Source: Rhodanobacter denitrificans (GTDB lineage Bacteria; Pseudomonadota; Gammaproteobacteria; Xanthomonadales; Rhodanobacteraceae). Taken from it: DNA of 64,000 nucleotides. Under the pieces are notes generated by a model that was given only the letters and a program-made list of their open reading frames with translations, was not told where the DNA came from and made no database searches. The stretch lies in assembly GCA_017848855.1 (NCBI GenBank), contig JAFIHF010000038.1, positions 1-64,000 of the forward strand. The letters are read 5' to 3'. This document shows positions 20,581-38,378 of the stretch, one piece after another (position 1 is the stretch's first letter; each line of letters opens with the position of its first letter). A program made the position numbers and the translations under genes.

Positions 20581-21410
20581 TTGCGGGCTGCTCTTTCTTC
20601 GCCCTTCGCTGGCTCGCCTATCGCAGCGTGCATTTCCCCTCTCCCGCTTGCGGGAGAGGGGTTGGGGAGAGGGGCTTTTGCTCTGGTGCTTTCGCAAGGA
20701 ACAAAGCAGTTTCGAGCGCCTGCCGGCGCCCGAGTTCCTTTCTCTTTGCTTGCCCAAAGAGAAAGGAACCAAAGAGAAATGGCACCCCGATGGCGCGCCC
20801 TCCGGGCATCCTGCCCTGCGGGTACGCGGGCGGGTTCCGGGGTTTTTCGACGGGACTCCTGTCCCGGCGAAAAACTGGCTCGCATCCCTGCGAGCCATCC
20901 TGCGGACTTTCCTCCACCCGCCCGCCGCGCCATAGGGGCCCCGGGTAGAGCAGCGCGCTCCCAGCGCGCACTCTTCAAAAGAGCAACAGCGCCGCAAGTT
21001 TGCGGCGCCGTGGCTTTTGCCTTTGCTTCTGGCGCGCACGATGCGCGCCTGCTTCTCCGGGGCCCCTCGGCGGCGGTGAGACGGGGACGAGAAGGCCGCG
21101 CAGCGGGCGAGGCCATGGATGGACTCGCCTTTTCGACCGGGCAGGATGCCCGGCCGAAAAGCCCGGCCACGGCTCACGCACTTTCCGTCCATGGATGGAC
21201 GGAAAGCGTCGCCGCGGGGTGCCCTTTCTCTTTGGCTACTTTCTCTTTGGGCACGCAAAGAGAAAGTAGCTCGGGCCGCGGCAGCGGCTCGAAACCGCTT
21301 TGTTCCTTGCGGCAGAAACCGCTTTGAACCTGGCGAGAGCACAACTCAAACGCATCCCCGCATGCAGCAACCCGCTAGCATGCGCCAGCACAAAACAACA
21401 AAGCCCCGTC
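20581..21410. repeat. 830-bp non-coding field of composite hairpin repeats
   Basis: No gene of its own is supported. From left to right: a CCCTCTCCCGC/GCGGGAGAGGG element (20636-20675); a 14-bp stem TTCCTTTCTCTTTG with its complement (about 20735-20770); GCGCGCTCCCAGCGCGC and GCCGCAAGTTTGCGGCG palindromes (about 20950-21010); a CTTTCCGTCCAT palindrome (about 21180-21206); a 15-bp stem GCTACTTTCTCTTTG (about 21233-21270). The part from about 21160 to 21330 parallels 1-170. The long open frames across both strands (up to about 250 codons) consist of translated repeat. A TAGCAT at 21376-21381 may be the -10 box of mutM. Confidence 0.8.
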
Positions 21411-22238
21411 ATGCCCGAACTCCCCGAAGTCGAAACCACCCGCCGCGGCATCGCCCCGCACGTGGTCGGCCGGCGCGTGACGGCGGTGACGCTGCGCCGC
21501 GCCGACCTGCGCTGGCCGATTCCGCGCGAGATCACCGAGCTGCTGCCCGGCCAGCGCATCGAGGCGGTGGAGCGGCGCGCGAAATACCTGCTGCTGCACA
21601 CCGAGGTCGGCAGCGCGCTGCTGCACCTGGGCATGAGCGGCATGCTGCGCGTGCTGCCGCCCGATGCGCCGCTCGGCCCGCACGACCACGTGGACATCGC
21701 GCTGGCGCGCGGCGCGCACGAGGGCGCGCGCGTGCTGCGCTTCACCGATCCGCGCCGCTTCGGCTGCCTGCTGTGGCAGCCGCCCGGCGCCACCCACCAA
21801 CTGCTCGCCCAGCTCGGCCCCGAGCCGCTCACCGAGGCGTTCGACGGCGATCTGCTGTGGCGGCGCTCGCGCGGCCGCCACGCGGCGGTGAAGTTGTTCC
21901 TGATGGACAACGCGGTGGTGGTGGGCGTGGGCAACATCTACGCCAGCGAGGCGTTGTTCGCCGCCGGCATCGATCCGCGCCGCGAAGCCGGCAGCGTGTC
22001 GCGCGCACGCTACGCGCGGCTCGCCGCCGAGGTGAAACGCATCCTCGCGTATGCGATCGAGCGCGGCGGCACCACGCTGCGCGACTTCCTCGCTCCCGAC
22101 GGCGCGCCCGGCTATTTCTTCCGCGAGTTGATGGTCTACGGCCGCGCGGGCGAGCCATGCAAGGTCTGCGGCGCGGCGATCCGCCAGGCCGTGCTGGGGC
22201 AGCGTTCCACGTTCTGGTGCCCGCGCTGCCAGCGCTGA
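21411..22238 (+). CDS. mutM: Formamidopyrimidine-DNA glycosylase
   Basis: Bifunctional base-excision-repair enzyme that removes 8-oxoguanine and formamidopyrimidines and nicks the backbone. The 275-residue protein starts with the catalytic [12 protein letters not shown] (Pro at position 1 after Met removal, Glu 2), has the lysine of the lesion loop region in RRAKYLLLH near residue 57, the helix-two-turn-helix motif [13 protein letters not shown] near 170, and a C-terminal zinc finger CKVCG...CPRCQR. All key residues are present. It follows the repeat field and stands alone. Confidence 0.97.
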
Positions 22239-22395
22239 CCGGGCAACGTTTCCCTGAAGAAACGCTGTAACCACGAATTGCCGGCTACCCGTCGCGGCGC
22301 AACGCGCCCACCATGAGCGCCATCCCGAACGCATGCACAAGACCGGAACGCCCGCCGTTCCGCGGGTTCGGCTTACTTTTTTCGGAGGAATCCCC

Positions 22396-22995
22396 ATGAG
22401 CTACGCCGTGATCGAACGCCTCAAGAAGCGCCGCACCCAGTACGCGCTGGGCCGCAACGTGGGCATGGACAAGGACGCCCTGAACAGCCTCATCCAGCAG
22501 GCGATCAAGCACACGCCGTCGTCGTTCAACTCGCAGAGCTCGCGCGCGGTGATCCTGTTCGGCGAGCAGAGCGTGAAGTTCTGGGAGCTGGCCAAGCAGG
22601 CGCTCGCCAAGGTCGTGCCGGCCGAGGCTTTCGCGCAGACCGCCGCCAAGCTGGACAGCTTCGCCGCCGGCGCGGGCACGGTGCTGTTCTACGAGGACCA
22701 GGACGTGGTGAAGGGCCTGCAGGAGAAATTCGCGCTGTACGCGGACAACTTCCCGGTGTGGTCCGAGCAGTCGGGCGGCATGGCGCAGTTCGCGGTGTGG
22801 ATGGCGCTGACCGATGCCGGCATCGGCGCCAGCCTGCAGCACTACAACCCGCTGGTGGACGAGGCCGCGCGTGCGGCCTGGAACGTGCCGGCGTCGTGGA
22901 AGCTGCGTGCGCAGATGCCGTTCGGTTCGCACGAAGGCGGCTTCGGCGAGAAGGCCTTCATGGACGACAGTCAGCGCTTCATCGTCGCGGGCTGA
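22396..22995 (+). CDS. Nitroreductase-family flavoprotein
   Basis: A 199-residue FMN-dependent oxidoreductase. The N-terminal helix ends in KRRTQYALG, with the FMN phosphate-binding Arg pattern of the family, followed by AIKHTPSSFNSQSSR, the nitroreductase substrate/FMN loop; GIGASLQHYNP near residue 148 is the second FMN segment. CGGAGGA is placed before the ATG at 22396, which overrides the longer frame. This subgroup (HBN1/YdgI-like) reduces nitro compounds or quinones; physiological substrate unknown. Confidence 0.88.
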   Translation: MSYAVIERLKKRRTQYALGRNVGMDKDALNSLIQQAIKHTPSSFNSQSSRAVILFGEQSVKFWELAKQALAKVVPAEAFAQTAAKLDSFAAGAGTVLFYEDQDVVKGLQEKFALYADNFPVWSEQSGGMAQFAVWMALTDAGIGASLQHYNPLVDEAARAAWNVPASWKLRAQMPFGSHEGGFGEKAFMDDSQRFIVAG

Positions 22996-23041: not shown

Positions 23042-24094
23042 TCACTCGTCCGCGTCGGCCTCGGTCAGGTGCCAGCCCTGCGCCAGATCAAGCGGCGCCG
23101 GGCCGGCGCCCAGCCACTTGCCGACCACCGGCTGGCCCTCGCGCAGCACGAAACCGGCGCGGCGCCAGCCCGCCATCCGTTCCGGTGCGGCCGCGCATTC
23201 CAGCGTGACCGAGGCGCAGCCTGCGCGCCGCGCCGCGCGCAGCAGCGCCAGCACCAGCCGGTGGTCGATGCCGTCCACGCCTTGCTGCGACCAGTAGTCG
23301 CGCACGTGCAGCACGCCGTCGCGCGTCTCGCAGGCGAACCATGCGCGCAGCGCGCCGCGGCGATCCGCGAGCAGCAGATAGCGCACGCCGGCGAGCGGCG
23401 AGGCGTCGAAGCGCCAGCGCGCCATGGCCGCGTCGTGCACGCCGAGCAGGCCCGCGCCGTGCGCCGATTCGTTCCACAGCGCATCCATCCGCGGATCGGC
23501 CTGTTCCGACCAGGTCGCCGTCACGCCTCGGCCAGGCAAGGCGCGCAAGCCGTCGTGCGCGGCGCGCACCGCGTCGAGCACGCCGCCCAGCGGCACGGCC
23601 AGCCAGCGCGGCATCCGCTGCTGCAGGTAGCGGGCGTGGCGCAGCACGCGCGCATGGCGCGACAGCTCGCCGAGCACGGCATAGCCCAGCCGCCGCACCA
23701 CCGGCAGCGACTTGCGGTTGGGGAAGCCGTAGAGCAGGTCGAAGCGTTGCGCCGCCGCGGCGATCAGTGCCTCCTGCAGCATCAGCGCGGGACCCAGCGT
23801 GCGGTGGCGCGCATCCACCGCCATGTCGGCCAGCAGGCCCGCGCGGATTTCGCGGCCTTGCCACAGCATGCGCCGCGCGGCCACGCCGCCGGTGCCGACG
23901 GTGGCGTCGCCGTGGCGGAGCAGTTGCAGCAGCGAGGGTCCGAACGGAGCGCCGAGATAGAACCAGTCGAACTTGCCCGCGTGCCGCGCGGGATCGCCCA
24001 GGTTGCCGCGCCACAGCGCCAGCACCGCGGCGCGGTCGCGCGGCAGCGCGGCGAGTTCGGCGCGATAGCCGCCGGCGGGATCGGCGGCCGTCAT
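23042..24094 (-). CDS. Two-domain GNAT-like acyltransferase of the glycan-modification cluster
   Basis: A 350-residue protein I place in the GNAT fold: the first half carries MAVDARHRTLGPALMLQEALI (residues about 90-110), a typical acetyl-CoA loop region, and LLYGFPNRKSLPVVRRLGY; the second half has a weaker GNAT-like unit with RRAGCASVTLECAAAPERM. Such proteins occur in exopolysaccharide gene clusters. Its start codon overlaps the stop of the NadE-like gene (ATGA), so it is the last gene of the six-gene operon. Acceptor unknown. Confidence 0.65.
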   Translation of the reverse strand: MTAADPAGGYRAELAALPRDRAAVLALWRGNLGDPARHAGKFDWFYLGAPFGPSLLQLLRHGDATVGTGGVAARRMLWQGREIRAGLLADMAVDARHRTLGPALMLQEALIAAAAQRFDLLYGFPNRKSLPVVRRLGYAVLGELSRHARVLRHARYLQQRMPRWLAVPLGGVLDAVRAAHDGLRALPGRGVTATWSEQADPRMDALWNESAHGAGLLGVHDAAMARWRFDASPLAGVRYLLLADRRGALRAWFACETRDGVLHVRDYWSQQGVDGIDHRLVLALLRAARRAGCASVTLECAAAPERMAGWRRAGFVLREGQPVVGKWLGAGPAPLDLAQGWHLTEADADE

Positions 24095-25068
24095 GGCGGC
24101 GCCTCCGGCCCCAGCAGCAGCGGCGCCAGGTGCAGGTAGCGCGTGCTGCTGCGCTTGCGCCGGATGTCGGTGTACACCGCTTCGGCCGCGGCTTCGGCGA
24201 TGCCCAGCGCGGCCGCCAGTTCGGCGGCCGGGCGCCGGTGTTCCAGCGCCCACAGCGCGAGATCCATCTGCGCCCACGGCAGCGCGAAGTAGAACTCGTC
24301 CTGGCCCTGGGCGAGGCTGTAGGTGTCGGTGGTGGGCGCCGCGGTGGCCACGCAGTCGGGCAGGCCGAGGTGCTTGGCCAGCGCGTAGACCTGGGTCTTG
24401 TACAGGTGCGCGATCGGCTTCACGTCGGCCGAGCCGTCGCCGTTCTTCACGAAGAAGCCCTGGTCGTACTCCAGCCGGTTCGGCGTGCCGACCACGGCGT
24501 AGTTCAGGCGGTCGGCGTGGAAGTATTCCAGCGTCTTGCGCAGGCGCTGCTTGTAGTTGGTGGCGGCGACGATCTGCAGGTATTCGGCCAGCGGCAGCGC
24601 GCATTCGTGGCGCACGCCGGCGGGCGATTCGGCGATCAGCTTGAAGCGGTTGATCGCGCCCTCGCTGCCGCCTTCGATCGCGAGCTTCATGCGCCAGTCG
24701 GCGGCGTAGCCGGGCAGCAGGCGGCGCACTGCCTCGTCGCGCGCGGCGTAGCAGCCGATCGCGGCCAGCGCGGGGGCGATGTCCACGGTCTGCACGCGCA
24801 CGCCCAGGTGTTCGGCCAGGATGCCCGCATGGCGCGCGCTGGCGGAGGCCGAGTCGCGCTCGGGCAGGATCAGGGCGAATACCTTGTCCGGCCCCAGCGC
24901 GCGCACCGCCAGCGCGGCGCACACGGAGCTGTCCACGCCGCCCGAGATCGCCACCACCAGGCCGCGCTTGTGCAGCACGCGCGCGACGGCTTCGCGCAGG
25001 CGCGCGGCGATGCGCGCGGCCTCGGCCTCCCAGTCCAGCTCGAACACCTTGGCGTTCAATCCTTCCAT
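24091..25068 (-). CDS. NadE-family ATP-pyrophosphatase (NAD+ synthase-like)
   Basis: A 325-residue N-type ATP pyrophosphatase with the loop AISGGVDSSV (residues 41-50), and the NAD-synthase segments VVGTPNRLEYDQGFF, NGDGSADVKPIAHLYKTQV near residue 220. It lacks the glutaminase domain of long NadE. The C-terminal section (APTTDTYSLAQGQDEFYF) differs from the usual PPSA..L.PGQTDE of genuine NAD synthases. Together with an amidotransferase, ACP and ligase in one operon, this suggests a dedicated amidation role on a cluster-specific carboxylate, though simple NAD+ synthase activity is also possible. AAGGAG precedes its ATG by 7 nt. Confidence 0.75.
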   Translation of the reverse strand: MEGLNAKVFELDWEAEAARIAARLREAVARVLHKRGLVVAISGGVDSSVCAALAVRALGPDKVFALILPERDSASASARHAGILAEHLGVRVQTVDIAPALAAIGCYAARDEAVRRLLPGYAADWRMKLAIEGGSEGAINRFKLIAESPAGVRHECALPLAEYLQIVAATNYKQRLRKTLEYFHADRLNYAVVGTPNRLEYDQGFFVKNGDGSADVKPIAHLYKTQVYALAKHLGLPDCVATAAPTTDTYSLAQGQDEFYFALPWAQMDLALWALEHRRPAAELAAALGIAEAAAEAVYTDIRRKRSSTRYLHLAPLLLGPEAPP

Positions 25069-25092
25069 GCATCTGCTCCTTCGCGTGGCCGC

Positions 25093-25980
25093 TCAGGCGC
25101 GGCGGGCCAGCACCACCCGCACGTCGCCGCGCGCATCGGCCAGTGGGCGCACCTCATCGTAGTGCGGATCGCGCTGCAGCCGCCGGCCCATCGCCGGCCC
25201 CTGGCCCAGCCCGACCTCCAGCGCCAGCCAGCCGCCGCGGCGCAGCAGGCGCGGCGATTCCTCCAGCAGGCGCAGCAGGATGGTGACGCCCAGCGGGCCG
25301 CCGTCGAAGGCCAGCCGCGGCTCGTGCGCGGCGATTTCCGGCGCCATCTGCCCGACCTTGGCGCTGAGGATGTAGGGCGGCGCACAGGCGACGAGATCCA
25401 CCGTGCCGTCGAACTCGCTGCCGAACGGCGCCAGCAGGTCGCCGCGGCGCAGCTCCACCCGTTCCAGCCCCAGGTGCCGGCGATTGCGTTCGGCCAGTGC
25501 CAGCGCCTCCGCACTGATGTCGGCGCCGCGCACCTCGGCATCGGGCACATGGTGGGCCAGCGCGAACGCGATGTTGCCCGAGCCGGTGCAGACATCGACC
25601 ACGCGGGCGGGTCGGCGCATCGCGTCGTGCCGCAGCAGCTCGATGCAGGCGTGCACGAGCTGTTCGGTTTCCACGCGCGGAATCAGCGCCTCGGGACCGC
25701 ACAGCACGTCCAGGCCCATGAAGTGCACGCGGCCGGTGAGGTGGGCCAGCGGCTCGCCCGCGAGGCGCCGGTCGACCAGCTCCTGCAGCCGGCAGCGCCG
25801 GGCCTCGTCGTGCAGCACGGGCAAGCCCTCGCGGCCGGCCGTCACCACCGAGCGCGGCTGCTCGGCGGCGGCATGCCACAGCGCGCGCAAGGTGCTTTCG
25901 GGGTTTTCCCGGGGCTTGTCCGGCAAGGTCTGAAGGGAACTGGCGAGCCGGTCGTGCAGCGTGCGAAAGAGCGTGTCCAT
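25093..25980 (-). CDS. HemK/PrmC-like methyltransferase with altered NPPY motif
   Basis: A 295-residue class I methyltransferase of the glutamine-N5 type: helical N-terminal domain (1-100) with PLAHLTGRVHFMGLD, then the SAM loop VVDVCTGSGNIAFAL near residue 142. The catalytic motif that reads NPPY(I) in PrmC/PrmB is here VACAPPYIL: the Asn that contacts the substrate amide is replaced by Ala. It is therefore probably not a release-factor or L3 methyltransferase but a paralogue recruited to the cluster, methylating another group or inactive. It starts 9 bp after the ligase gene. Confidence 0.78.
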   Translation of the reverse strand: MDTLFRTLHDRLASSLQTLPDKPRENPESTLRALWHAAAEQPRSVVTAGREGLPVLHDEARRCRLQELVDRRLAGEPLAHLTGRVHFMGLDVLCGPEALIPRVETEQLVHACIELLRHDAMRRPARVVDVCTGSGNIAFALAHHVPDAEVRGADISAEALALAERNRRHLGLERVELRRGDLLAPFGSEFDGTVDLVACAPPYILSAKVGQMAPEIAAHEPRLAFDGGPLGVTILLRLLEESPRLLRRGGWLALEVGLGQGPAMGRRLQRDPHYDEVRPLADARGDVRVVLARRA

Positions 25981-25989
25981 GGATGGCCT

Positions 25990-27555
25990 TCAGCTGAGTG
26001 ATTGTTCCAGCAGCGCCTTGCGGCTGACCTTGCCGGTGACGGTGCGCGGCAGCTCCGCGCAGATCACGATCTGCTGCGGCACCATGAAATTCTCCAACCG
26101 CTTCATGCAGTGCGCGCGGATCTGCGCCGCATTCAAGTCGGCGCCCGGCTGCAGCACCACGTGGGCGCGGATCGCCTGGCCCAGCAGCTCGTCGGGCACG
26201 CCCACCACCGCGGCCTCGCGCACGCCGTCGATGGCGTGCAGCGCGTTCTCCACCTCGACCGGGCTCACCTTTTCGCCGCGGGTCTTGATGATGTCGTCGC
26301 TGCGCCCGACGAAGTAGAGGAAACCGTCCGCGTCCATGCGGAACCAGTCGTGCGTGCACAGCACGCGCTCGCCGGGCAGCGGGCCGGGCACCAGCATCTG
26401 CGCGCTGAGCTCGGGGCGGTTCCAGTAGCCCAGCATCACGTGCGGGCCGCGCACGTGCAGGATGCCCACCTCGCCCGGCGGCACCGGCTCGCCCGCAGGC
26501 GAACGCAGGAACACCTCGGTGCCGGGGATCGCCTTGCCCACCGAGCCGGGCTTCGCTTCCAGCAGTTCCGGTTCGAGGTAGCACACGCGTTTGCACTCGG
26601 TGAGGCCGTACATCTTGTAGATCAGCGCGTGCGGGAAGATCTCGCGCAGGCGCAGCGCCTGCTCGTCGGGCAACGCGGCGGCGGTGTTCGTCACTCGCGT
26701 CACGGCAGGGAAACGCAGCGGCTCGCCGCGATGCGCGGAGAGCAGCATCGCGAAGATCGTGGGCACGCCGGGGAATACCGTCACGCCGAATTCGCGCATG
26801 CGCGCGAACACCTGCGCGGGGAACGCGAAGGAACGTTCCAGCACCAGGGTAGCGCCCAGCTGCACCGTCATCAGCCACTGGTACAGGCCGTAGTCGAAGG
26901 CCAGCGGCAGCGCGCACAGGATGCGGTCGTCGGGGCCGAGGCGCAGGTATTCGATCAGGCTGCCGGCGGCGAACAGCATGGCTTGGTGCGTCTGCATCAC
27001 GCCCTTGGGCTGCCCGGTGGAACCGGAGGTGTAGATCAGCGCGGCGAGATCCAGCGCGATGCTGGCTGGCCGCGCGGCCAGCGGCGCGCTCGCGGCGAGC
27101 ACCGCGTCGAAGGCCTCGATCGCCTGGCCCGCGGGCAGCGCGCCGGAGGCAATCACGCGCAACGCGGGGCGCGCGGGCAGCAGTGGCAGGAATTCCTTCG
27201 CGATGTGGCCGTCGGTGAGCAGCACGCGCGCGCCGCTGTCGTCGAGCAGGAAGCCGAGCTTGTCCGCCTTGGTCAGCGGGTTGACCGGCATGAACACGCC
27301 GCCGGCCAGCAGCGTGGCGAAGATCGCCACCACGCAGGGCCAGGTGTTGTCCATGTAGATCGCCACGCGGTCGCCGCGCTCCACGCCGCGCGCCTGCAGT
27401 GCAGTGGCCAAGCGCAGGGCCGCATCGAGCAGTTCGCCGTAGGTGTGCGGCTGGCCCTCGACCACCACCGCGATGCGCCGCGCGCGATGCGGGTCGGCGC
27501 CGTGCTCCAGCAGCGCCTCGTGCAGCAGGCGGTGCGGCGCGATGCGCTCGTTCAC
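25990..27555 (-). CDS. Adenylate-forming acyl ligase (acyl-CoA/acyl-ACP synthetase)
   Basis: A 521-residue ANL-superfamily enzyme that activates a carboxylic acid as acyl-AMP. Motifs in order: A3 LIYTSGSTGQPKGVM near residue 165, A5 KMYGLTECKRVCYLEP near 300, A7 FRMDADGFLYFVGRSDDIIKTRGEKVSP near 405-430, and the A10 lysine in TVTGKVSRKAL at the end. GTG at 27555 is chosen: it overlaps the stop of the ACP gene (GTGA) and leaves the natural N-terminus. The neighbouring ACP is the likely acceptor. It resembles ligases of exosortase-linked glycan clusters, but no exosortase is seen here. Confidence 0.85.
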   Translation of the reverse strand: MNERIAPHRLLHEALLEHGADPHRARRIAVVVEGQPHTYGELLDAALRLATALQARGVERGDRVAIYMDNTWPCVVAIFATLLAGGVFMPVNPLTKADKLGFLLDDSGARVLLTDGHIAKEFLPLLPARPALRVIASGALPAGQAIEAFDAVLAASAPLAARPASIALDLAALIYTSGSTGQPKGVMQTHQAMLFAAGSLIEYLRLGPDDRILCALPLAFDYGLYQWLMTVQLGATLVLERSFAFPAQVFARMREFGVTVFPGVPTIFAMLLSAHRGEPLRFPAVTRVTNTAAALPDEQALRLREIFPHALIYKMYGLTECKRVCYLEPELLEAKPGSVGKAIPGTEVFLRSPAGEPVPPGEVGILHVRGPHVMLGYWNRPELSAQMLVPGPLPGERVLCTHDWFRMDADGFLYFVGRSDDIIKTRGEKVSPVEVENALHAIDGVREAAVVGVPDELLGQAIRAHVVLQPGADLNAAQIRAHCMKRLENFMVPQQIVICAELPRTVTGKVSRKALLEQSLS

Positions 27556-27818
27556 GCCGGGCTCCGCTGGCGCTCGACGAAGCGCACGATGTTGTTCACC
27601 GAGTCGAAGTTCTCCGGCAGCATCTCGCTGGCCTTGACCCGGATGCCGAACTCCTCTTCGAGGAACATCACCACTTCCAGCACGCCGGTGGAGTCGATGA
27701 TGCCGCGGTCCAGCAGCGAGGCGTCGTTCGGCAGCTCGCTGCCGTCGTCGCTGAACAGCAGGTTCTGCAGGATGTAATGGCGGACGCGTGCTTCCACGCT
27801 CGCGGTTTCGGTCGACAT
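27552..27818 (-). CDS. Acyl carrier protein
   Basis: An 88-residue carrier protein with four-helix ACP character. The phosphopantetheine attachment serine is S43 in GIIDSTGVLEVVMFLEEEF, with D-S-T in place of the usual D-S-L. It sits between the amidotransferase (17-bp gap) and the ligase gene (4-bp overlap), so it probably carries the acid activated by the ligase. It is not the housekeeping fatty-acid ACP, which has a different sequence and context. Confidence 0.88.
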   Translation of the reverse strand: MSTETASVEARVRHYILQNLLFSDDGSELPNDASLLDRGIIDSTGVLEVVMFLEEEFGIRVKASEMLPENFDSVNNIVRFVERQRSPA

Positions 27819-27835
27819 CGTGTGCTCCGGCAAGG

Positions 27836-29773
27836 TCATGCGGCGGCCCGCCGCAGAAAGAATTCGTCGACCAGCATGGTCGAGAGGATGCCGACGAAGG
27901 CCTGGTTGTCGGCGAAGCCGATCGCGCGTCCGTGCCGGCATTTGTCGAACAGGCGCCCCACCGCCGCGGCGTCGAACCAGCCCGCGGCGCGGATGCGCTC
28001 GGCACCCAGCAGCTCGGCCACGTAGTCCAGCGGCTCGCCGTCGACGAAGAAGCTGGACTGGTCGGGCGCGCGGTAGGGTTGCTTGGTGCGGGTGCGGATG
28101 TCCTCCGGCAGCAGGCCGGCGAGCGCGCGGCGCAGCACGTCCTTCTCGGTCATGCCGCGGATCTTCCAGTGCGCGGGCAGCGCGTTCGCGAACTCGATCA
28201 CGCGGTGGTCGAGGAAGGGAAAGCGCCCCTCGATCGAATGCGCCATCGCGGGGCGGTCGCCCTGCGAGGGCAGCAGGTAGGCCGCCAGCAGGGTCTTGGC
28301 CTCCACGTACTGGTCGCGCGCCAGCGGGCTCCAGTGCGCGATCGCGGGCGGCAGGCGCTGCTCGTACCAGGCCAGCGGATCCCAGTCGTCGAGGCCGGCG
28401 CGCAGCTCGGGCGCGAGGAAACGCAGCGCGTGCCGCGAGCTGGTCCAGCGCGGCACGTGGGCGAAGATCGGCCGGTCGAGATGCTCCATGCCGCGGCCGA
28501 AGAAGGACTGCGCCAGCGCCGCGTGCTGCACGGGCGAATTTTCCAGATAGCCGTAAAGACGGCCAAGCAGCAGCGGGCGGAAGCGCGAACCGGGCTGGCG
28601 CGCCCAGAAGCGCCGCACCTTGGCCTCCTTGAACAGGTCGTAGCCGCCGAACACCTCGTCGGCGCCCTCGCCGGTGAGCACCACCGTGTAGCCCGACGCG
28701 CGCACCTGCTGCGCCAGCAGCATCAGCGGCACGCCGGCGGTGCGCAGCACCGGTGCTTCGGCATGCCGCACGAAGCGCGGGAAGGCGGCGCCGATGTCGC
28801 GCCGCGTGCAGCGCAGCGTGGTGTGCTCGCAGCCCAGGTGGCGCACCATCGCCTGCTGCTGCGCGCTCTCGTCGAACTCGGCCTCGTCGAAGGCGATCGA
28901 GAACGTGCGCGTCGCAGTGGCGCCCGCCGCGCGCATCAGCGCCACCACGGCGGAGGAATCCAGCCCGCCGCTGAGGTAGGCGCCCAGCGGCACGTCGGCC
29001 TGCAGGCGCAGGCGCACGGCATCGGTGAGCAATTCGCGCAGCTCGCCCGCGGCCTGTTCCGGCGTGGCCCAGCGCCGCGGCGTTCCCGGCGCGGGGAAGC
29101 TCCAGTCCCAGTAGCGGTGCAGCGTCTCGCGGCCGTCGCGCTCGATCGCCAGCAGATGCCCCGGCGGCAGGCTCGCGATGCCGGCGAACACGCTGCCCGG
29201 CTCGATCGGCCCCCAGAACGTGAACGCCTGCGCCAGGCTGTGCGGATCGAGCCGCGCCAGCTCGGGGCGCACCGCGAGCAGCGCCTTGATCTCCGAGGCG
29301 AACCAGAGCCGGCCGCCCGCGCGCACGTGGTACAGCGGGCGCACGCCGCAGCGGTCGCGCGCCAGCAGCAGGCGCTGCCGCTCGCCGTCCCACAGCGCGA
29401 TCGCGAACTGGCCGTTCAAGTGCTCCACGAAACGGTCGCCGTGCTCCTCGTACAGGTGCACGATGACCTCGGTGTCCGATTGCGTGGCGAAACGGTGGCC
29501 GCGCCGCTGCAGCTGCGCGCGCAGGCCGCGGTAGTTGAAGATCTCGCCGTTGAACACCGTCCACACGTTGCCGCGCTCGTTCGCGATCGGCTGCGCGCCG
29601 GTGGGCAGGTCGATCACCGCCAGCCGCGCGTGCGCCAGCCCGGCGCCGCCGTCGACATGGAAGCCGTAGCCGTCCGGGCCGCGGTGGTGCAGGGTGTGGA
29701 TCATCCGCTCGAGCGTGGCCTGCATCGCGGCAGGCGCATCCGGTGGACCGAGGAAACCGGCTATGCCGCACAT
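27836..29773 (-). CDS. Asparagine synthetase (glutamine-hydrolysing) family amidotransferase
   Basis: A 645-residue AsnB-family enzyme. The N-terminal glutaminase domain begins at Cys2 (MCGIAGFLGP), with HRGPDGYGFH and FNGEIFNYRGLR; the synthetase domain carries the ATP loop YLSGGLDSSAV near residue 270 and LTGEGADEVFGGY near 375. It is longer than housekeeping AsnB (about 550) and resembles exopolysaccharide-cluster amidotransferases that act on sugar or peptide carboxylates. First gene of the operon, preceded by AGGAAG; it faces the deacetylase gene across a 488-bp gap. Confidence 0.85.
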   Translation of the reverse strand: MCGIAGFLGPPDAPAAMQATLERMIHTLHHRGPDGYGFHVDGGAGLAHARLAVIDLPTGAQPIANERGNVWTVFNGEIFNYRGLRAQLQRRGHRFATQSDTEVIVHLYEEHGDRFVEHLNGQFAIALWDGERQRLLLARDRCGVRPLYHVRAGGRLWFASEIKALLAVRPELARLDPHSLAQAFTFWGPIEPGSVFAGIASLPPGHLLAIERDGRETLHRYWDWSFPAPGTPRRWATPEQAAGELRELLTDAVRLRLQADVPLGAYLSGGLDSSAVVALMRAAGATATRTFSIAFDEAEFDESAQQQAMVRHLGCEHTTLRCTRRDIGAAFPRFVRHAEAPVLRTAGVPLMLLAQQVRASGYTVVLTGEGADEVFGGYDLFKEAKVRRFWARQPGSRFRPLLLGRLYGYLENSPVQHAALAQSFFGRGMEHLDRPIFAHVPRWTSSRHALRFLAPELRAGLDDWDPLAWYEQRLPPAIAHWSPLARDQYVEAKTLLAAYLLPSQGDRPAMAHSIEGRFPFLDHRVIEFANALPAHWKIRGMTEKDVLRRALAGLLPEDIRTRTKQPYRAPDQSSFFVDGEPLDYVAELLGAERIRAAGWFDAAAVGRLFDKCRHGRAIGFADNQAFVGILSTMLVDEFFLRRAAA

Positions 29774-30261
29774 CGCGTCGCTTCCTCAGGAGACCGGTCG
29801 ACCGATTGCGGATGACGACGGCCCGCACCACGCCGGCACGGCCACGCGCCCGCCGCCCATGGCCGGCATCCGCCGATCATGGGAACCCGATGCGATCGAC
29901 GACCTTGTCGGCATGGCGCCCCCTATTCCCTGTGCCGCGGCCGGTTGCGCAGACGCTTTCCCGGACGCGTGTCAGAGCCTATAGAATGCATCATGAAAGC
30001 GTGATTTACATCACCTTTCGAGGAGGGACAGTCCGCTCGCCGGCAGGCAAGCGGCAGTCGGCCCAGGGGACTCGTCGACATGTCACACGCCGTGATGCAG
30101 GAAGCACTCGTCATGCCCGGCTTCGGCGCCGCGCCGATGCGTCGGCTCGCCCGCCCGTGCCGCGCCGCCGATCCGGATGGACGATCACGCCGCCGATCGG
30201 CCCCGCCCATTTGCGCCGATCGGGCATCGCCCCGCCCGGCCCGTCGCCGGAGGCGGCTGCC
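29774..30261. other. Divergent 488-bp control region of the glycan cluster
   Basis: This gap lies between the first gene of the minus-strand amidotransferase operon and the deacetylase gene. It contains a CRP/Clp-type palindrome (30000-30015), a TATAGAAT-like -10 box near 29980-29987 on the plus strand, and a GAGGAGGG close to 30020. No gene is convincing; a 62-codon frame at 30080-30268 overlaps the deacetylase start and has the Arg/Pro-rich composition of random high-GC sequence. Confidence 0.6.
30000..30015 (+). promoter_or_regulatory. CRP/Clp-type binding site
   Basis: CGTGATTTACATCACC matches the TGTGA-N6-TCACA pattern in 8 of 10 positions, within an otherwise GC-rich gap. In Xanthomonadales the CRP homologue Clp, which responds to cyclic di-GMP, controls exopolysaccharide and secretion genes. 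It is 246 bp upstream of the deacetylase start and 227 bp from the amidotransferase start. Confidence 0.45.
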
Positions 30262-31341
30262 ATGCTGAATCGCGTCCGGCCCGGCGGAGCGTCTTCCGGC
30301 CTGCGCGGGCGCCTCGGCTGGCTGTGCCACCGCAGCGGCCTGCTGCGCCCGCTGCAACAGGCGCGCAGCTGCCTGTACCGGGACCTGCGGCTGCTGGCCT
30401 ACCACCGCGTGCTGACCGTGGAGGAGCCGGATCGCTTCGATTTCGACCTCGGCCTGGTCAGCGCCTCGGCAGAGGGCTTCCGGCGCCAGATGCAGCTGCT
30501 GAAGCGGCGCTTCCGGCCCATGCCGCTGGGGCAGGCGGTGGCGGCGATCGACGCCGGCGAACGGCTGCCGGCCGATGCGGTGGTGGTGACTTTCGACGAC
30601 GGCTACGACGACAACTACCACTGTGCCTTTCCCGTCCTGCGCGAACTGGGGATACCGGCCACCTTCTTCGTCTCCACCGGACACATCGACAGCGGCCGCC
30701 CGTTTGCCTACGACTGGCTGGTGCACATGATCCTGTGCGCGCCGGCCGGCGAGCTGGCCCTGCCCGAGCTGGACATGGCGCAACCCATGCCGGCCGGGCG
30801 CGCGGCGCGCCGGGAGCTGGCGCAGGACATGCTGGATCGGCTGAAGGATCTCGACGACGGCAGCCAGACCGCGCTGATGGCGCGCCTGCAGCGGGCATGG
30901 GGGCTGCCCGCCGCGGCCGGCCACGCCGACTGCCGGCCGATGAGCTGGGCGCAACTGCGCGAAATGCACGCGGCCGGCTGCGAGATCGGCTCGCACGGCG
31001 TGCATCACCGCATGCTGGCCAAGCTGCCCACCGCCGTGCTGGAGGCGGAACTGCGCGACTCCCGGGCCGCGCTGGAACGCGAACTCGGCGCGCCCGCCTC
31101 GCTGCTCTCCTATCCGGTCGGCGGCGACGCCTCGTTCGACGAGCGGGTGATCGCGGCGGCCAAGGCGGCCGGCTACCGCGCGGCGTGCAGCTACATCTGC
31201 GGCACCAATCCGGCGCGCGCCACCGACCGCTACGCGCTGCGGCGCCTGCCGGTCGAACGCGAGATGGACGAAGGCTGGTTCGCCGCGATGCTGACCCTGC
31301 CCGAGCTGGTGAGCTACCCCACCGTCAGCCGAAAATCCTGA
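30262..31341 (+). CDS. Polysaccharide deacetylase (NodB domain)
   Basis: A 359-residue carbohydrate esterase family 4 protein. The metal and catalytic motifs are visible: VVTFDDGYDDNY (residues about 108-119, with the paired Asp), the SHGVHHRM histidine box near 250, and LLSYPVGG near 290 as motif 3. It removes acetyl groups from N-acetyl sugars. No signal peptide is obvious, so it may act in the cytoplasm or on lipid-linked sugars. GGAGG precedes the ATG at 30262; the longer frame upstream has no support. It is divergent from the amidotransferase operon and likely part of the same pathway. Confidence 0.87.
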   Translation: MLNRVRPGGASSGLRGRLGWLCHRSGLLRPLQQARSCLYRDLRLLAYHRVLTVEEPDRFDFDLGLVSASAEGFRRQMQLLKRRFRPMPLGQAVAAIDAGERLPADAVVVTFDDGYDDNYHCAFPVLRELGIPATFFVSTGHIDSGRPFAYDWLVHMILCAPAGELALPELDMAQPMPAGRAARRELAQDMLDRLKDLDDGSQTALMARLQRAWGLPAAAGHADCRPMSWAQLREMHAAGCEIGSHGVHHRMLAKLPTAVLEAELRDSRAALERELGAPASLLSYPVGGDASFDERVIAAAKAAGYRAACSYICGTNPARATDRYALRRLPVEREMDEGWFAAMLTLPELVSYPTVSRKS

Positions 31342-31345
31342 AAGC

Positions 31346-32119
31346 TCAATCCGGCCAGCGGAATTCCACGTGCCGGTTGTTGAACGCGGGATCGTCGAGG
31401 CTGCCGCCCGGTTGCGCGGTCAGCGCCTGCGCCATGCCTTCCACTTCCAGCGCCTGGCCGGCGACGAAGCGCGTGCCCAGCGCCTGCAGTTCCACCAGCT
31501 TCTCGCACAGCAGGCCGGCGCGTTCCAGCTCGTGCGCGGGCACCTGGCGGAAGCTGAGGTCGGGGCGGGCGAACTTGCGCATGCCGCGGGTGTGCACCCA
31601 GGAGCGCTCGCCGCCCTCCTCGTCGCTGCGCAGGATCAGCACGTGGTTGCGCGGCGGCGCGCCGCCCGGCACCAGGTAGCGTTCGCGCCACGCCGCGGCG
31701 CCGAACAGGCCCATGATCTGCGGATCGAGGATCGCGCGACCGCCGACGTCGAGCAGGGCCGCGAGCACGCCCAGCGTGTCGCGCAGGTAGTCGAGGCTGG
31801 CACGGTCGGCCAGCTGCCCGCGCACCAGCAGCACCTCGGGCGCGACGCGCGCCTGCTCGAAAGTCTCCGGCGCGTCCTCGCGCAGGATCTCGCCCAGCGA
31901 ACCGTTGAGCGGGTAGCCCTCCCACTTGCGCAATTCGAGGTTCGGGTAGCGCTTGAGCTCCACGCCCGCGGGCAGGCCGGGGCTGCCGTAGCGCTGTGCC
32001 GGGATCACCAGCTCGCGCTCGAACTTGCCGAACACGTAGAACTGCAGCAGCGCATCCTCGCCGGCGCCGGGTTGCCAGTAGGGGCGGGGCCAGTCGGGGG
32101 TTGGAGTGATCTCGGTCAT
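31346..32119 (-). CDS. Hypothetical protein, 257 residues
   Basis: I do not recognise a family. The soluble protein starts MTEITPTPDWPRPYWQPG and has no signal peptide or helix for membrane insertion. Blocks that look conserved are LELRKWEGYPLNGSLG near residue 65, a regular strand-helix section RASLDYLRDTLGVLAALLDVGG, and a hydrophobic QIMGLFG. It is convergent with the deacetylase gene (4-bp gap) and lies about 70 bp from tdk on the same strand, so it may be read with tdk. Codon use matches the rest of the window, and no obvious frameshift is seen. Confidence 0.7.
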   Translation of the reverse strand: MTEITPTPDWPRPYWQPGAGEDALLQFYVFGKFERELVIPAQRYGSPGLPAGVELKRYPNLELRKWEGYPLNGSLGEILREDAPETFEQARVAPEVLLVRGQLADRASLDYLRDTLGVLAALLDVGGRAILDPQIMGLFGAAAWRERYLVPGGAPPRNHVLILRSDEEGGERSWVHTRGMRKFARPDLSFRQVPAHELERAGLLCEKLVELQALGTRFVAGQALEVEGMAQALTAQPGGSLDDPAFNNRHVEFRWPD

Positions 32120-35094: not shown

Positions 35095-36675
35095 ATGATC
35101 GACTCGACCCGGGCCTACGCCAAGCTCGTCGCCGCCTTCCACCAGAACGACTGGCCGCGCGTGCAGCAGCGCGCCAGCCAGCTGCTCGCGGTGGCGCCGG
35201 ACGACGCGCGCGTGCACCACATGGCCGGCGTGGCCTGCATGCAATCCCGGCAGATGCCGCAGGCGCTGGAACACCTGCTGAAAACCACCCACCTGGAACC
35301 GCGCCGCGCCGACTACGTTGCGCAATACGCGAAGGCGCTGGCGCTGACGCGCCGCCTGCGCGAGGCCCGGCTGGTCGCGGACCGCGCGATGACCCTGGCG
35401 CCCGCCGATGCGCCGACCCTGGACACGCTGGGCATGGTCTACCGGCAGGCCAACGCCCACCTGCAGTCGACCACGGCGTTCCGCCGCGCGGCGGCGCTGG
35501 CGCCCGAGCACGCGCTCACCCGCCTCCACCTCGCCTATGCGCTGAACTCGATCGGCGACGTCGCCGGCGCCGAGCAGGAGCTGGAGGCCTGCATCCGGCT
35601 GGAACCGCGCCACTGGTATGCGCATCTGCTGCTCGCCCAGCTGCAGAAGCAGACCGCCGAGCACAACCACCTCGCGCGCCTGCGCGAGCTGGCGGAACGC
35701 CACGCCGACGACCCCGGCGCGCAGCTCCTGCTCAACATCGCGCTGGGCAAGGAATGCGACGACCTCGCCGACTACCCGGCCGCGTTCGCGCACTACACGC
35801 GCGGCAAGGCCGCCGGCCGGCGCATGCGTCCCTATACGTTCGCGCGCGACGAGGCGATATTCGACGCGCTGATCCGCGCCTTTCCCGCCAACGGGGCGGA
35901 GACCGCCGCGGGCGACCCCACGCGCGAGCCGATCTTCATCATCGGCATGCCGCGCACCGGCACCACCTTGCTCGACCGCGTGCTCTCCAGTCATCCCGAC
36001 GTGCACTCCGCCGGCGAGCTGCAGAATTTTCCCACCGCGCTGCAACGGGCCTCGGGCTGCCCCACCGCCCTGCTCGGCGAGGCGGATATCGCCGCGCGCA
36101 CCCGCCACATCGACTGGCGGCAGCTGGGCGCCGCCTACCTCGCCAGCACGCGGCCGGCCACCGGCGGCACGCCGCGCTTCATCGACAAGCTGCCGCACAA
36201 TTTCCTGTATGCCGGCTTCATCGCCCGCGCGCTGCCGAACGCGAAGATCGTCTGCCTGCGCCGCGACCCGCTGGACACCTGCGTGGGCAACTTCCGCCAC
36301 CTGTTCGAGCAGGAGTCGGGCTTCTACGACTACTCCTTCGACCTCGCCGACATCGGCCGCTACTACATCCAGTTCGACCGCCTGATCGCGCATTGGCGCA
36401 AGCTGCTGCCGGGGCGCATTTTGGAGCTGTCCTACGAGTCGCTGGTGACGGACCCGGAAGCCACCACGCGCGAGCTGCTGGCCTTCTGCGAACTGCCCTG
36501 GAACGAGGCCTGCCTGCGCTCCGAGGACAACGCCGCGCCGGTCAACACACCCAACGCCTGGCAGGTGCGCGCGCCGATCTATCGCAGCGCGGTGGGCCGC
36601 TGGAAACGGTTCCAGCCCGAGCTGCGCGACCTGCGCTGGCTGCTCGCCGGCGCCGGCATCGGGACGGCGGAGTAA
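35095..36675 (+). CDS. TPR-domain sulfotransferase, intact copy
   Basis: A 526-residue protein with an N-terminal helical repeat domain (residues about 1-270, TPR-like pairs such as AVAPDDARVHHMAGVACMQ) and a C-terminal PAPS-dependent sulfotransferase domain. The 5'-phosphosulfate loop is FIIGMPRTGTTLLDR near residue 285, the 3'-phosphate site KIVCLRRDPLDTCVGNFRHLF near 385, and the C-terminal helix motif WQVRAPIYRSAVGRWKRF is well preserved. Such proteins sulfate protein tyrosines or carbohydrates; acceptor not known. AGGGGA precedes the ATG. Followed by a diverged copy. Confidence 0.85.
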   Translation: MIDSTRAYAKLVAAFHQNDWPRVQQRASQLLAVAPDDARVHHMAGVACMQSRQMPQALEHLLKTTHLEPRRADYVAQYAKALALTRRLREARLVADRAMTLAPADAPTLDTLGMVYRQANAHLQSTTAFRRAAALAPEHALTRLHLAYALNSIGDVAGAEQELEACIRLEPRHWYAHLLLAQLQKQTAEHNHLARLRELAERHADDPGAQLLLNIALGKECDDLADYPAAFAHYTRGKAAGRRMRPYTFARDEAIFDALIRAFPANGAETAAGDPTREPIFIIGMPRTGTTLLDRVLSSHPDVHSAGELQNFPTALQRASGCPTALLGEADIAARTRHIDWRQLGAAYLASTRPATGGTPRFIDKLPHNFLYAGFIARALPNAKIVCLRRDPLDTCVGNFRHLFEQESGFYDYSFDLADIGRYYIQFDRLIAHWRKLLPGRILELSYESLVTDPEATTRELLAFCELPWNEACLRSEDNAAPVNTPNAWQVRAPIYRSAVGRWKRFQPELRDLRWLLAGAGIGTAE

Positions 36676-36797
36676 ACACCCCGCCGGACGGCCACGGCTG
36701 ACGCCGGCATCGCCGCGGCCGGGCAGTTGACGGCCACCGGCGTGCCGTCCAGTGTGCGCATGTCGTCCGCCTCAGCCTGGATGCCAGGGGGAATGCC

Positions 36798-38378
36798 GTG
36801 ATCGATTCGAGCCGGGCCTTCACCAAACTCGTCGCCGCCTTCAACCAGAACGACTGGCCGCGGGTGCAGCACCATGCCGGCGAATTGCTGGCGCTCGCGC
36901 CGGGCGATGCGCGCGTGCACTTCATGGCCGGCGTGGCCTGCCTGGAGCGGCAGCAGTGGGCGGGCGCGCTGGAGCACCTGCTGCAAGCCACCCGGCTGGA
37001 ACCGCGCCGCGCCGACTATGCCGCCCAGCACGCGAAGGCGCTGGCGCAGCTGCAGCGGATGCCCGAGGCGCGGCAGGCCGCGGACCGCGCGATGAGCCTG
37101 GCGCCCGACGACGCCTGGACCCTGGACACGCTGGGCGTGATCTACCTGCAGGCCCATGCGCCGGCGCAGGCGGCCACCGCGTTCCGCCGCACCGTGGCGC
37201 TGCTGCCCGGCCACGCCCCCGCCCACTTCAAGCTGGCCCACGTGCTGACCGCGCTGGACGACGTCGAGGGTGCGGAGCGCGAACTGGAAGCCTGCATCCG
37301 GCTCGAACCGCGCCACTGGCCCGCGCACCTGCGCCTCGCCGAACTGCGGCCGCAGACCCTCGGGCGCAACCATCTCGCGCGACTGCGCGCCCTGCTGCAA
37401 CAGCACGCCGCCGACCCCGCCGCGCAGACCTTCCTCAACATCGCGCTGGGCAAGGAATGCGAGGACACCGGCGACTACCCCGCCGCGTTCGCGCACTACG
37501 CGCGCGGCAAGGCCGCCGGCCGGCGCCAGCGCCCCTATGACTTCGCGCGCGACGAAGCGATGTTCGACGCGCTGGTCCGCGCCTTTCCCCTCGGCCAAGC
37601 CGGCGCACCGGCCGGCGACCCCACGCACGAACCGATCTTCGTCGTCGGCCTGCCGCGCAGCGGCATCGCCCTGCTCGACCGCCTGCTCTCCAGCCACCCC
37701 GACGTGCACTCCGCCGGCGAGCTGGAGCACTTCCCGATGCTGCTGCAGCATGCCTCGCACTGCCACGGCATGCTGCTGCGCGAGGCGGACATCGCCGCGC
37801 ATACCCGCCACATCGACTGGCAGCAGCTCGGCGCGGTCTACCTCGCCAGCACGCGGCCGGCCACCGGCCACACGCCGCGCTTCATCGACCGGCTGCCGCA
37901 CAACTTCCTGTCCGTCGGCTTCATCGCCCGCGCGCTGCCGAACGCAAAGATCGTCTGCCTGCGCCGCGACCCGCTGGATACCTGCCTCGCGAACTTCCGC
38001 CACCTGTTCGAGCAGGCCTCGGACTGGTACAACTATTCTTTCGACCTCGCCGACATCGGCCGCTACTACCTCGCGTTCGACCGCCTGATGGCGCACTGGC
38101 ACACCCTGCTGCCCGGACGCATCCTGGAGGTGTCCTACGAGTCGCTGGTGGCCGACCCGGAGGCCAGCATGCGCGAACTGCTGGCCTGGTGCGGGCTGCC
38201 CTGGCACGGCGCCCACCGGCGTCCGGCGCGGAACGCCGCGGCGGCCAACGCGCCCGGTGCCCGGCCGCCGCACACGCCGATCCGCCACGACGCGGTGGGC
38301 CGCTGGAAACACTTCAAACCCCAGCTGGACGAGCTGCGCTGGATGCTGGCCGGCGCCGGCATCGACACGCCGCCTTGA
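36798..38378 (+). CDS. TPR-domain sulfotransferase paralogue, probably degenerate
   Basis: The same length (526 residues) and domain order as its left neighbour, so it arose by tandem duplication. Key parts have decayed: the 5'-phosphosulfate loop reads FVVGLPRSGIALLDR, with TT replaced by IA; the substrate-side DKLPHN is DRLPHN; and WQVRAPIYRSAVGRW near the end has become RPPHTPIRHDAVGRW. The 3'-phosphate site is kept (KIVCLRRDPLDTCLAN). It starts with GTG at 36798 after an AGGGGG. Likely a pseudo-enzyme or a diverged function; the reading frame is intact. Confidence 0.8.
   Translation: MIDSSRAFTKLVAAFNQNDWPRVQHHAGELLALAPGDARVHFMAGVACLERQQWAGALEHLLQATRLEPRRADYAAQHAKALAQLQRMPEARQAADRAMSLAPDDAWTLDTLGVIYLQAHAPAQAATAFRRTVALLPGHAPAHFKLAHVLTALDDVEGAERELEACIRLEPRHWPAHLRLAELRPQTLGRNHLARLRALLQQHAADPAAQTFLNIALGKECEDTGDYPAAFAHYARGKAAGRRQRPYDFARDEAMFDALVRAFPLGQAGAPAGDPTHEPIFVVGLPRSGIALLDRLLSSHPDVHSAGELEHFPMLLQHASHCHGMLLREADIAAHTRHIDWQQLGAVYLASTRPATGHTPRFIDRLPHNFLSVGFIARALPNAKIVCLRRDPLDTCLANFRHLFEQASDWYNYSFDLADIGRYYLAFDRLMAHWHTLLPGRILEVSYESLVADPEASMRELLAWCGLPWHGAHRRPARNAAAANAPGARPPHTPIRHDAVGRWKHFKPQLDELRWMLAGAGIDTPP

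What the first reader, a model, noticed from the sequence alone, without database searches (positions are those of the whole stretch)
23042..31341. Candidate acyl/amide surface-modification cluster
An AsnB-type amidotransferase, an acyl carrier protein, an adenylate-forming ligase, a HemK-like methyltransferase, a NadE-like pyrophosphatase and a GNAT protein are translationally coupled, with a polysaccharide deacetylase facing them. The combination suggests activation of a carboxylate, its loading on ACP and amidation, followed by transfer to a glycan or peptide. No glycosyltransferase, polymerase or exosortase is seen, so it does not match standard polysaccharide loci.
Basis: partly seen in the sequence, partly recalled or inferred. 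Interest (0 to 1): 0.75.

Follow-up and report, generated by a model that had tools for sequence, protein, structure and literature searches.

The report
Relocated exopolysaccharide-decorating gene block
Seven neighbouring genes that most likely build a small chemical group and attach it to the bacterium's sugar coat; in some related bacteria they lie inside the sugar-coat gene cluster, and here they stand apart from it as one block.

Summary
In detail: six packed minus-strand genes (AsnB, ACP, adenylate-forming ligase, HemK-like methyltransferase, NadE-like enzyme, GNAT) and a facing deacetylase fill 23042-31341. They are one unit: seven sister genomes have the two flanking genes side by side with no gene between. 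That no polysaccharide locus explains them holds only locally. In one Rhodanobacter (G005) the same genes, deacetylase included, lie inside an XrtA-type exopolysaccharide (EPS) locus; in G011 that locus lacks them and the block sits about 90 kb away. All 10 block-bearing genomes of 61 have the EPS gene TIGR03007, against 12 of the other 51. The core quartet also stands on Sinorhizobium pSymB, apparently the published SMb20651/SMb20650 operon of unsettled function. Best explanation: a cytosolic EPS-tailoring module; the deacetylase frees an amine, ligase and ACP load an acyl group, AsnB and the NadE-like enzyme amidate, GNAT transfers, much as in Nod factor synthesis. The EPS link is well supported; substrates are inferred. 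The own genome has an XrtA-type EPS locus with NRPS-PKS genes and no detected exosortase.

The parts
23042..24094 (-). Tandem-GNAT acyltransferase (350 aa), proposed transfer enzyme
   Evidence: Weak Pfam Acetyltransf_9; AlphaFold model pLDDT 93.2 matches tandem GNATs such as 2hv2, Eis2, histidine acetyltransferase at TM 0.44-0.65; overlaps the NadE gene by ATGA
24091..25068 (-). NadE-fold ATP-dependent amidating enzyme (325 aa), no glutaminase domain
   Evidence: NF002048 459 bits; 2e18 (NadE) first in Foldseek; separate housekeeping NadE on C73; about 50 residues more than 2e18 between the two matched stretches
25093..25980 (-). HemK/PrmC-like methyltransferase (295 aa) with APPY in place of NPPY
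   Evidence: TIGR03534 204.9 bits, cut-off 199.1; genome has a better PrmC on C72, 311 bits; position 200 is N 13, A 10, L 6, S 1, I 1 in 31 rows, window included
25990..27555 (-). Adenylate-forming ligase (521 aa, GTG start), proposed acyl/aminoacyl-ACP ligase
   Evidence: AMP-binding + C-terminal domain; D221 in line with the Asp of NRPS adenylation domains; R323 in 83 of 83 rows left after four were dropped
27552..27818 (-). Acyl carrier protein (88 aa; 95 aa if the start at 27839 is used)
   Evidence: PP-binding; Ser of the DST motif conserved in at least 93% of 86 rows
27836..29773 (-). AsnB-type glutamine-dependent amidotransferase (645 aa) with N-terminal Cys2
   Evidence: GATase_7 and Asn_synthase; Cys2 motif in 64 of 67 rows by pattern; below the cut-offs of TIGR03108 and TIGR03104
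30259..31341 (+). Polysaccharide deacetylase (360 aa), divergent from the six, no signal-like segment
   Evidence: Polysacc_deac_1 88.3 bits; D112 D113 H245 H249 (numbering of the 359-aa call) each in at least 93% of 33 rows; hydrophobicity scan; homologue next to the Wzy-like gene in EPS loci of G005 (66%) and G018 (58%)
22333..22995 (+). Left flank: nitroreductase-family gene, not part of the unit
   Evidence: Pfam Nitroreductase; directly beside the right-flank gene in 7 sister genomes
31346..32119 (-). Right flank: conserved gene without family match, not part of the unit
   Evidence: No Pfam/NCBIfam match at E 0.001; adjacent to the nitroreductase gene in 7 sister genomes

Best explanation
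The seven genes are a cytosolic tailoring module for an exopolysaccharide made by an XrtA-type EPS locus, standing apart from that locus as one block. Shown by comparison: the unit character, the tie to EPS loci in this lineage, the enzyme folds and the conserved catalytic motifs. Inferred: (1) the deacetylase frees an amino group on a hexosamine of the lipid- or nucleotide-linked EPS precursor; (2) the ligase adenylates a carboxylic acid, in this subclass probably one bearing an amino group, and loads it on the ACP; (3) the HemK-like enzyme methylates that substrate; (4) AsnB (with glutamine) and the NadE-fold enzyme (with ammonia) turn carboxylates of the acyl group or of uronic acids into amides; (5) the tandem GNAT moves the finished acyl group from ACP to the freed amine. 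Deacetylase, ACP, acyltransferase and methyltransferase would then act as NodB, ACP, NodA and NodS do in Nod factor synthesis.
For: Empty site in 7 sister genomes, so the seven genes went in or out together. In G005 AsnB-ACP-ligase-MT-NadE-GNAT and a 66% identical deacetylase lie in one run with nucleotide-sugar dehydrogenase, EpsB2, Wzx, Wzy, Wza, chain-length and kinase homologues; G018 likewise without MT; in G011 the EPS locus was read from Wza to the dehydrogenase gene and none of the seven is among its best matches, while the block sits about 90 kb beyond it. All 10 block genomes among 61 have TIGR03007, against 12 of 51 others, Fisher p 7e-6, not corrected for kinship. XrtA models over cut-off upstream of the quartet: TIGR03007 and TIGR03006 in L075, TIGR03027 in L117; 29 of 80 named loci have an EPS marker in the flank held. 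In one S. meliloti pSymB record an MT homologue (42%) lies about 12 kb from the quartet beside genes annotated as lipopolysaccharide biosynthesis, GNAT, GumC, polysaccharide deacetylase and three glycosyltransferases. MT is present only where the ligase has D221: 27 of 27 MT+ loci, 3 of 53 MT- loci. The deacetylase, GNAT, MT, ACP and AsnB have no signal- or membrane-like segment. The deacetylase, ACP-dependent acyltransferase and N-methyltransferase logic is established for NodB, NodA, NodS (PMC5080398, passages).
Against: No substrate was tested. 51 of 80 loci show no EPS marker in the stretch held, and quartets on Rhizobium ACO-34A, Shinella HZN7 and Mesorhizobium NBSH29 plasmids have no polysaccharide gene in the annotated stretches seen, so the quartet need not serve EPS everywhere. 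12 relatives with TIGR03007 lack the block. The annotated GNAT and the deacetylase near the S. meliloti MT are not close to the window's: no match and a weak profile match. The published S. meliloti pair was reported (recalled abstract) to carry C12/C18 fatty acids on the ACP in E. coli, which does not favour an amino acid. All seven genes side by side were seen only in the window, G007, G011 and, with NadE in two frames, G001, among 90 stretches. The hydrophobicity scan gives 1.90 and 2.08 for NadE and ligase, inside their folds, so it is not decisive for these two. Expression is not known.
Confidence: 0.6

Rival explanations
1. Same EPS role, other chemistry: the ligase loads a fatty acid on the ACP and the GNAT lipidates a deacetylated sugar (NodA-like), while AsnB and the NadE-like enzyme separately amidate uronic acids of the polymer.
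For: S. meliloti SMb20650 acylates SMb20651 when co-expressed in E. coli (PMC7232532, passages); the ligase scores 366 bits with an acyl-CoA ligase subfamily model, though below its cut-off; the EPS loci have a UDP-glucose/GDP-mannose dehydrogenase family gene, hence probably uronic acids.
Against: SMb20650 cannot replace FadD for long-chain fatty acids; the top solved-structure matches are NRPS adenylation domains, with malonyl- and benzoate-CoA ligases next; Asp at position 221 as in amino acid adenylation domains, tied to the methyltransferase.
Confidence: 0.25
2. A small-molecule pathway: the block makes a diffusible amide or N-acyl compound, and its tie to EPS loci is co-regulation or shared ecology.
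For: Free-standing quartets on Sinorhizobium, Shinella, Mesorhizobium and Rhizobium plasmids and loci without EPS marker, 51 of 80.
Against: The deacetylase goes with the block here, and its homologues in G005 and G018 stand beside the Wzy-like gene of the EPS locus; every block genome of 61 has TIGR03007; no exporter in the block.
Confidence: 0.12
3. An osmolyte route like the N-acetylglutaminylglutamine amide trio (AsnB-type amidotransferase plus GNAT).
For: AsnB matches TIGR03104 at 348 bits.
Against: Below the cut-off of 570; the GNAT matches no NCBIfam model at E 0.001; no hydrolase gene in the block; ACP and ligase have no place in that route (the route is recalled).
Confidence: 0.03
4. 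A second NAD synthetase and a second PrmC in a chance neighbourhood.
For: Curated models call the two proteins NAD(+) synthase and PrmC.
Against: The genome has both housekeeping enzymes elsewhere; the MT lacks the NPPY Asn; the core gene order recurs in distant classes.
Confidence: 0.02

Closest known systems
Sinorhizobium meliloti pSymB operon with ACP SMb20651 and ligase SMb20650 (with asnB and nadE)
   Same: Same four genes in the same order, 43-54% identical, ligase of the same D221 class; ligase reported to acylate the ACP in E. coli (PMC7232532 passages)
   Different: No MT, GNAT or deacetylase in the operon; an MT homologue, an annotated GNAT and a deacetylase lie about 12-20 kb away in a polysaccharide cluster. 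That this operon is SMb20650/51 rests on the recalled abstract of Ramos-Vega 2009, since the strain 1021 record here is not annotated
XrtA/PEP-CTERM exopolysaccharide loci
   Same: In some relatives the module sits inside or beside them
   Different: Block stands apart here; its AsnB and ligase are below the XrtA models TIGR03108 and TIGR03098; no exosortase found in the own genome
Nod factor acyl exchange (NodB, NodA, NodS with an ACP)
   Same: Set of deacetylase, ACP, acyltransferase and methyltransferase (PMC5080398, passages)
   Different: Deacetylase far below the NodB model and GNAT without a NodA match; adds ligase and two amide-forming enzymes; no link to symbiosis shown
Zoogloea/Aquincola floc-forming EPS cluster with two asparagine synthetase genes
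   Same: AsnB-type genes in a large EPS cluster (PMC9012009, one passage)
   Different: Not compared by sequence here; NadE-like and ACP-ligase genes are not mentioned in the passage

Membership tests
SMb20651-type quartet (asnB-ACP-ligase-nadE) | Four genes in this order, contiguous | tested here: not met
   Order AsnB-ACP-ligase-NadE is kept, but the window has the MT between ligase and NadE
SMb20651-type quartet (asnB-ACP-ligase-nadE) | Homologous members of all four | tested here: met
   S. meliloti pSymB L237: 50.5, 43, 52.5 and 54% identity for AsnB, ACP, ligase, NadE
SMb20651-type quartet (asnB-ACP-ligase-nadE) | Ligase acylates the ACP | not testable with these tools
   Reported for the S. 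meliloti pair only
XrtA/PEP-CTERM EPS locus | Exosortase present | tested here: not met
   PF09721: 0 of 1 in the own genome, 92.7% complete
XrtA/PEP-CTERM EPS locus | Chain-length determinant TIGR03007 and EpsB_2 TIGR03013 | tested here: met
   In the genome, not in the block: 376 bits on C46, 546 bits on C10
XrtA/PEP-CTERM EPS locus | XrtA deacetylase TIGR03006 over cut-off | tested here: not met
   Best 48 bits, cut-off 276
XrtA amidotransferase / ligase (TIGR03108, TIGR03098) | Score over the curated cut-off | tested here: not met
   428 of 817 and 421 of 592 bits
NAD synthase NadE | PP-loop SGGVDSS and NadE fold | tested here: met
NAD synthase NadE | Is the genome's NAD synthase | tested here: inconclusive
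   A second NadE, 194.6 bits, lies on C73, so it need not be; activity itself not testable
PrmC release-factor methyltransferase | Score over TIGR03534 cut-off | tested here: met
   204.9 of 199.1 bits
PrmC release-factor methyltransferase | NPPY motif (recalled as defining) | tested here: not met
   APPY in the window; N in 13 of 31 rows; a better PrmC on C72
NAGGN trio | TIGR03104 amidotransferase over cut-off | tested here: not met
   348 of 570 bits
Nod factor enzymes | NodB TIGR04243 over cut-off | tested here: not met
   19.6 of 240 bits
Dlt system | DltC model over cut-off for the ACP | tested here: not met
   NF003464 38.8 of 68 bits

The most novel reading that the evidence does not exclude
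Free-living soil bacteria run a Nod-factor-like acyl exchange on an exopolysaccharide: an acetyl group is replaced by a methylated, amidated aminoacyl group that is built on a dedicated carrier protein with a repurposed NAD synthetase. In some Rhodanobacter the same EPS locus also holds NRPS-PKS genes, so the polymer would be a peptide- and polyketide-bearing polysaccharide; the one paper search on NRPS, exopolysaccharide and exosortase together listed no such polymer.
Probability: 0.27. Interest if true: 0.82.

Novelty: new variant of a known kind. Interest (0 to 1): 0.6.

Why it matters
An ACP-ligase operon of this type in S. meliloti has been in print without a settled function (a 2017 paper says the ACP needs further investigation, PMC5686131 passage). 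The present comparison ties the gene set to EPS loci in several gammaproteobacterial lineages, and in one S. meliloti record to a polysaccharide cluster about 12 kb away, and so gives a direct test in a laboratory strain. It also flags a branch of 'NAD(+) synthase' and 'PrmC' annotations that are probably wrong, and gives a gene set for finding EPS tailoring modules that stand away from their loci.

Tried and rejected
Considered and rejected: standard XrtA ligase and amidotransferase (below cut-offs); NAGGN trio, Dlt and NodB membership; housekeeping NadE and PrmC as the main role; an XrtA locus with exosortase in the own genome.

Led nowhere: paper searches for the gene combination gave no paper or a long list without a relevant one among the 20 shown; the listings named no description of the set; Haft 2006 (PMC1569441, outline with abstract and a term search) has no occurrence of amidotransferase, ligase or NAD in the main text. 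The library holds open-licence papers only, so these searches do not show that nothing is in print. Gene calls on the G051 stretches gave almost nothing with the window's codon model and were replaced by tblastn. No direct repeats or mobile-element remains were seen by eye at the block's edges in the short stretches printed. The GNAT-like protein beside the S. meliloti MT matches the window's GNAT family only weakly and the annotated GNAT there not at all; neither was used as evidence of descent.

Rows dropped: four ligase-cluster rows (L103_0, L040_1, L102_9, L112_15) were left out as other kinds of ligase; L112_15 has the Asp and no MT in its locus, and L103_0 and L040_1 also have Asp in an NRPS-like motif. 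81 of 87 non-redundant stretches have a ligase-cluster gene and 80 entered; the one missing row fell to the length filter, by my reading L069. L034, L036 and L039 were left out as duplicates of L041, L049 and L066. Four Luteimonas loci with MT (L068, L082, L083, L092) have no ligase row.
Full report
WHAT IS THERE. The window lies in a Rhodanobacter-like genome of 3.49 Mb in 73 contigs, 92.7% complete. The seven genes are at the stated place. The five junctions of the six minus-strand genes are short or overlapping, so translational coupling is plausible from the sequence.

ONE UNIT. In 61 relatives a close NadE-like gene (62% or more) is in 10 genomes. A close AsnB (46% or more) is in the same 10; 10 further rows at 35-44% pass the limit of 1e-80 and are other amidotransferases. 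The MT at 59% or more is in 8 of the 10; one further row, G020 at 45%, is in a genome without the others (limit 1e-40). Of 15 genomes of the genus, own included, 5 have the block. The left-flank nitroreductase gene was found in 11 of these 15. In three of the 11 (own, G007, G011) the block lies next to it. In seven (G001, G002, G003, G004, G010, G013, G014) the right-flank gene follows it directly, with 82-205 bp between the matches. G009 was not fetched. G001 carries the same seven elsewhere, NadE in two frames. So the deacetylase belongs to the unit although it faces the other way. A tree of NadE+AsnB from 63 loci places the window with G007 and G011 and next to the EPS-embedded L041 of G005 (quick method, supports 99 and 100).

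HOME OF THE UNIT. In G005 one run holds homologues of Wza, chain length, kinase, outer membrane protein, deacetylase, glycosyltransferases, Wzx, Wzy, the window-type deacetylase (66%), NRPS and NRPS-PKS genes and a cupin, then AsnB-ACP-ligase-MT-NadE-GNAT, a glycosyltransferase, EpsB2, an epimerase and a nucleotide-sugar dehydrogenase (names by similarity to the own genome's locus, families). In G018 the same kind of locus holds the deacetylase (58%) beside Wzy and AsnB-ACP-ligase-NadE-GNAT before EpsB2, without MT and with a ligase of the other class (40%). In G011 the EPS locus was read from Wza to the dehydrogenase gene; none of the seven is among its best matches, only a relative of the GNAT paralogue between cupin and EpsB2, and the block begins about 90 kb beyond it. 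The own genome has the G011-like locus split over the end of C10 and the start of C46; the sequence between these contigs is not known, so it cannot be said that its locus lacks the seven. For G001 only part of the EPS locus was fetched. Family evidence for the own locus: TIGR03013 546 bits (cut-off 393), TIGR03007 376 bits (279); TIGR03018, TIGR03016, TIGR03100, TIGR03101 and TIGR03097 match below cut-off. No exosortase was found, and no XrtA deacetylase over cut-off.

STATISTICS. TIGR03007 is over cut-off in 22 of 61 relatives; all 10 block genomes are among them, and 12 of the 51 others are too; Fisher p 7e-6; within the genus 5 of 5 against 1 of 10, p 0.002. These p values ignore kinship, and the tie is one-way. 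One search gave 80 named loci, the best of at least 570, chosen by NadE similarity: 50 of 80 have AsnB, ACP, ligase and NadE in the stretch held, 19 lack AsnB only, 11 have other combinations; 29 of 80 have an EPS marker in the flank held, two of them (L061, L076) resting on weaker markers. Contigs that end early can lower both counts. In L075 TIGR03007 and TIGR03006, and in L117 TIGR03027, are over cut-off upstream of the quartet; TIGR03018, TIGR03016 and TIGR03015 in L075 are below theirs.

CHEMISTRY. AsnB keeps Cys2 (64 of 67 rows) and both catalytic parts. The NadE-like enzyme has the most conserved columns, though the loci were picked by it; it keeps the PP-loop, has the NadE fold, and has about 50 extra residues between its two matched stretches compared with 2e18. 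The ligase family falls in two classes; the window's class has FDYGLYQ, where D221 lines up with the Asp of NRPS adenylation domains, and R323 is in 83 of 83 rows kept. MT and D221 go together: 27 of 27 loci with MT have D, 3 of 53 without MT do (not independent by descent). This suggests, without proving, that the MT acts on the ligase's substrate and that the substrate bears an amino group. The GNAT model matches tandem GNATs. The deacetylase keeps the Asp-Asp and His-His motifs and shows no signal-like segment, so it would work before export. The same scan gives no membrane-like segment for GNAT, MT, ACP and AsnB; NadE and ligase have hydrophobic stretches within their folds. NodB, NodA and NodS offer the working analogy (PMC5080398 passages).

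KNOWN RELATIVE. The AsnB query (limit 1e-120) and the NadE query (limit 1e-60) each hit 116 of 72,556 plasmid records, in both cases mainly Sinorhizobium, then Azospirillum, Ensifer, Shinella and Mesorhizobium; I did not check that the records are the same ones. In one S. meliloti pSymB record (CP140959.1) asnB, ACP, adenylate-forming enzyme and nadE are contiguous near minCDE, the ligase has FDYGLYQ, and an MT homologue, 42% identical, lies about 12 kb away in a stretch annotated with a lipopolysaccharide biosynthesis gene, a GNAT, GumC, a deacetylase and three glycosyltransferases. The annotated GNAT there does not match the window's family and the deacetylase does so weakly. All four quartet genes also match side by side in S. 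meliloti 1021. In Rhizobium ACO-34A, Shinella HZN7 and Mesorhizobium NBSH29 the quartet stands without polysaccharide genes in the stretches seen. PMC7232532 (passages) says ligase SMb20650 is cotranscribed with ACP SMb20651, acylates it in E. coli and does not replace FadD. That asnB and nadE1 belong to that operon, and the C12/C18 acylation, are recalled from the abstract of Ramos-Vega 2009, which is not held.

VERDICT. A real, conserved unit; most likely an EPS-tailoring module standing apart from its EPS locus; core known, combination and role new as far as the searches here show; substrates open.

Noticed in passing
L196:11983-19998, L197:169-10208, L130:2-20000 (own genome, contigs C10 and C46): An XrtA-type EPS locus without a detected exosortase holds NRPS and NRPS-PKS genes (A-KS-AT-ACP-aminotransferase; C-A-PCP) and a cupin; homologues are in G011, G007 (NRPS part seen) and G005. 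The polymer may carry a peptide-polyketide group.
   Followed up: partly
L196:18964-19998: A GNAT paralogue (40% identical to the window's) stands in the EPS locus between EpsB2 and cupin, where G005 has the six-gene module.
   Followed up: partly
L084, L086, L087, L089, L090, L093, L100: Thiomonas-type loci with ligase-ACP-NadE-MT and no AsnB in the stretch held, next to genes that look by eye like glnA and ntrBC.
   Followed up: no
L076, L079, L088, L091, L096, L103: Loci, mostly Burkholderiales, with Ser in place of Asp at the ligase specificity position and no MT; GNAT is upstream of AsnB in three of the six (L076, L079, L088).
   Followed up: partly
window 35095-38378: Two neighbouring TPR-sulfotransferase genes of 526 aa each; in 7 sister genomes both match the same single place in the stretch fetched, so the window may hold a duplication.
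   Followed up: partly
window 20693-21311: A 119-nt inverted repeat, 83% complementary, with 381 nt between the arms, upstream of the gene at 21411.
   Followed up: no
L036/L049 (G001): The NadE-like gene matches in two frames, so it may be broken or misread in that assembly.
   Followed up: no
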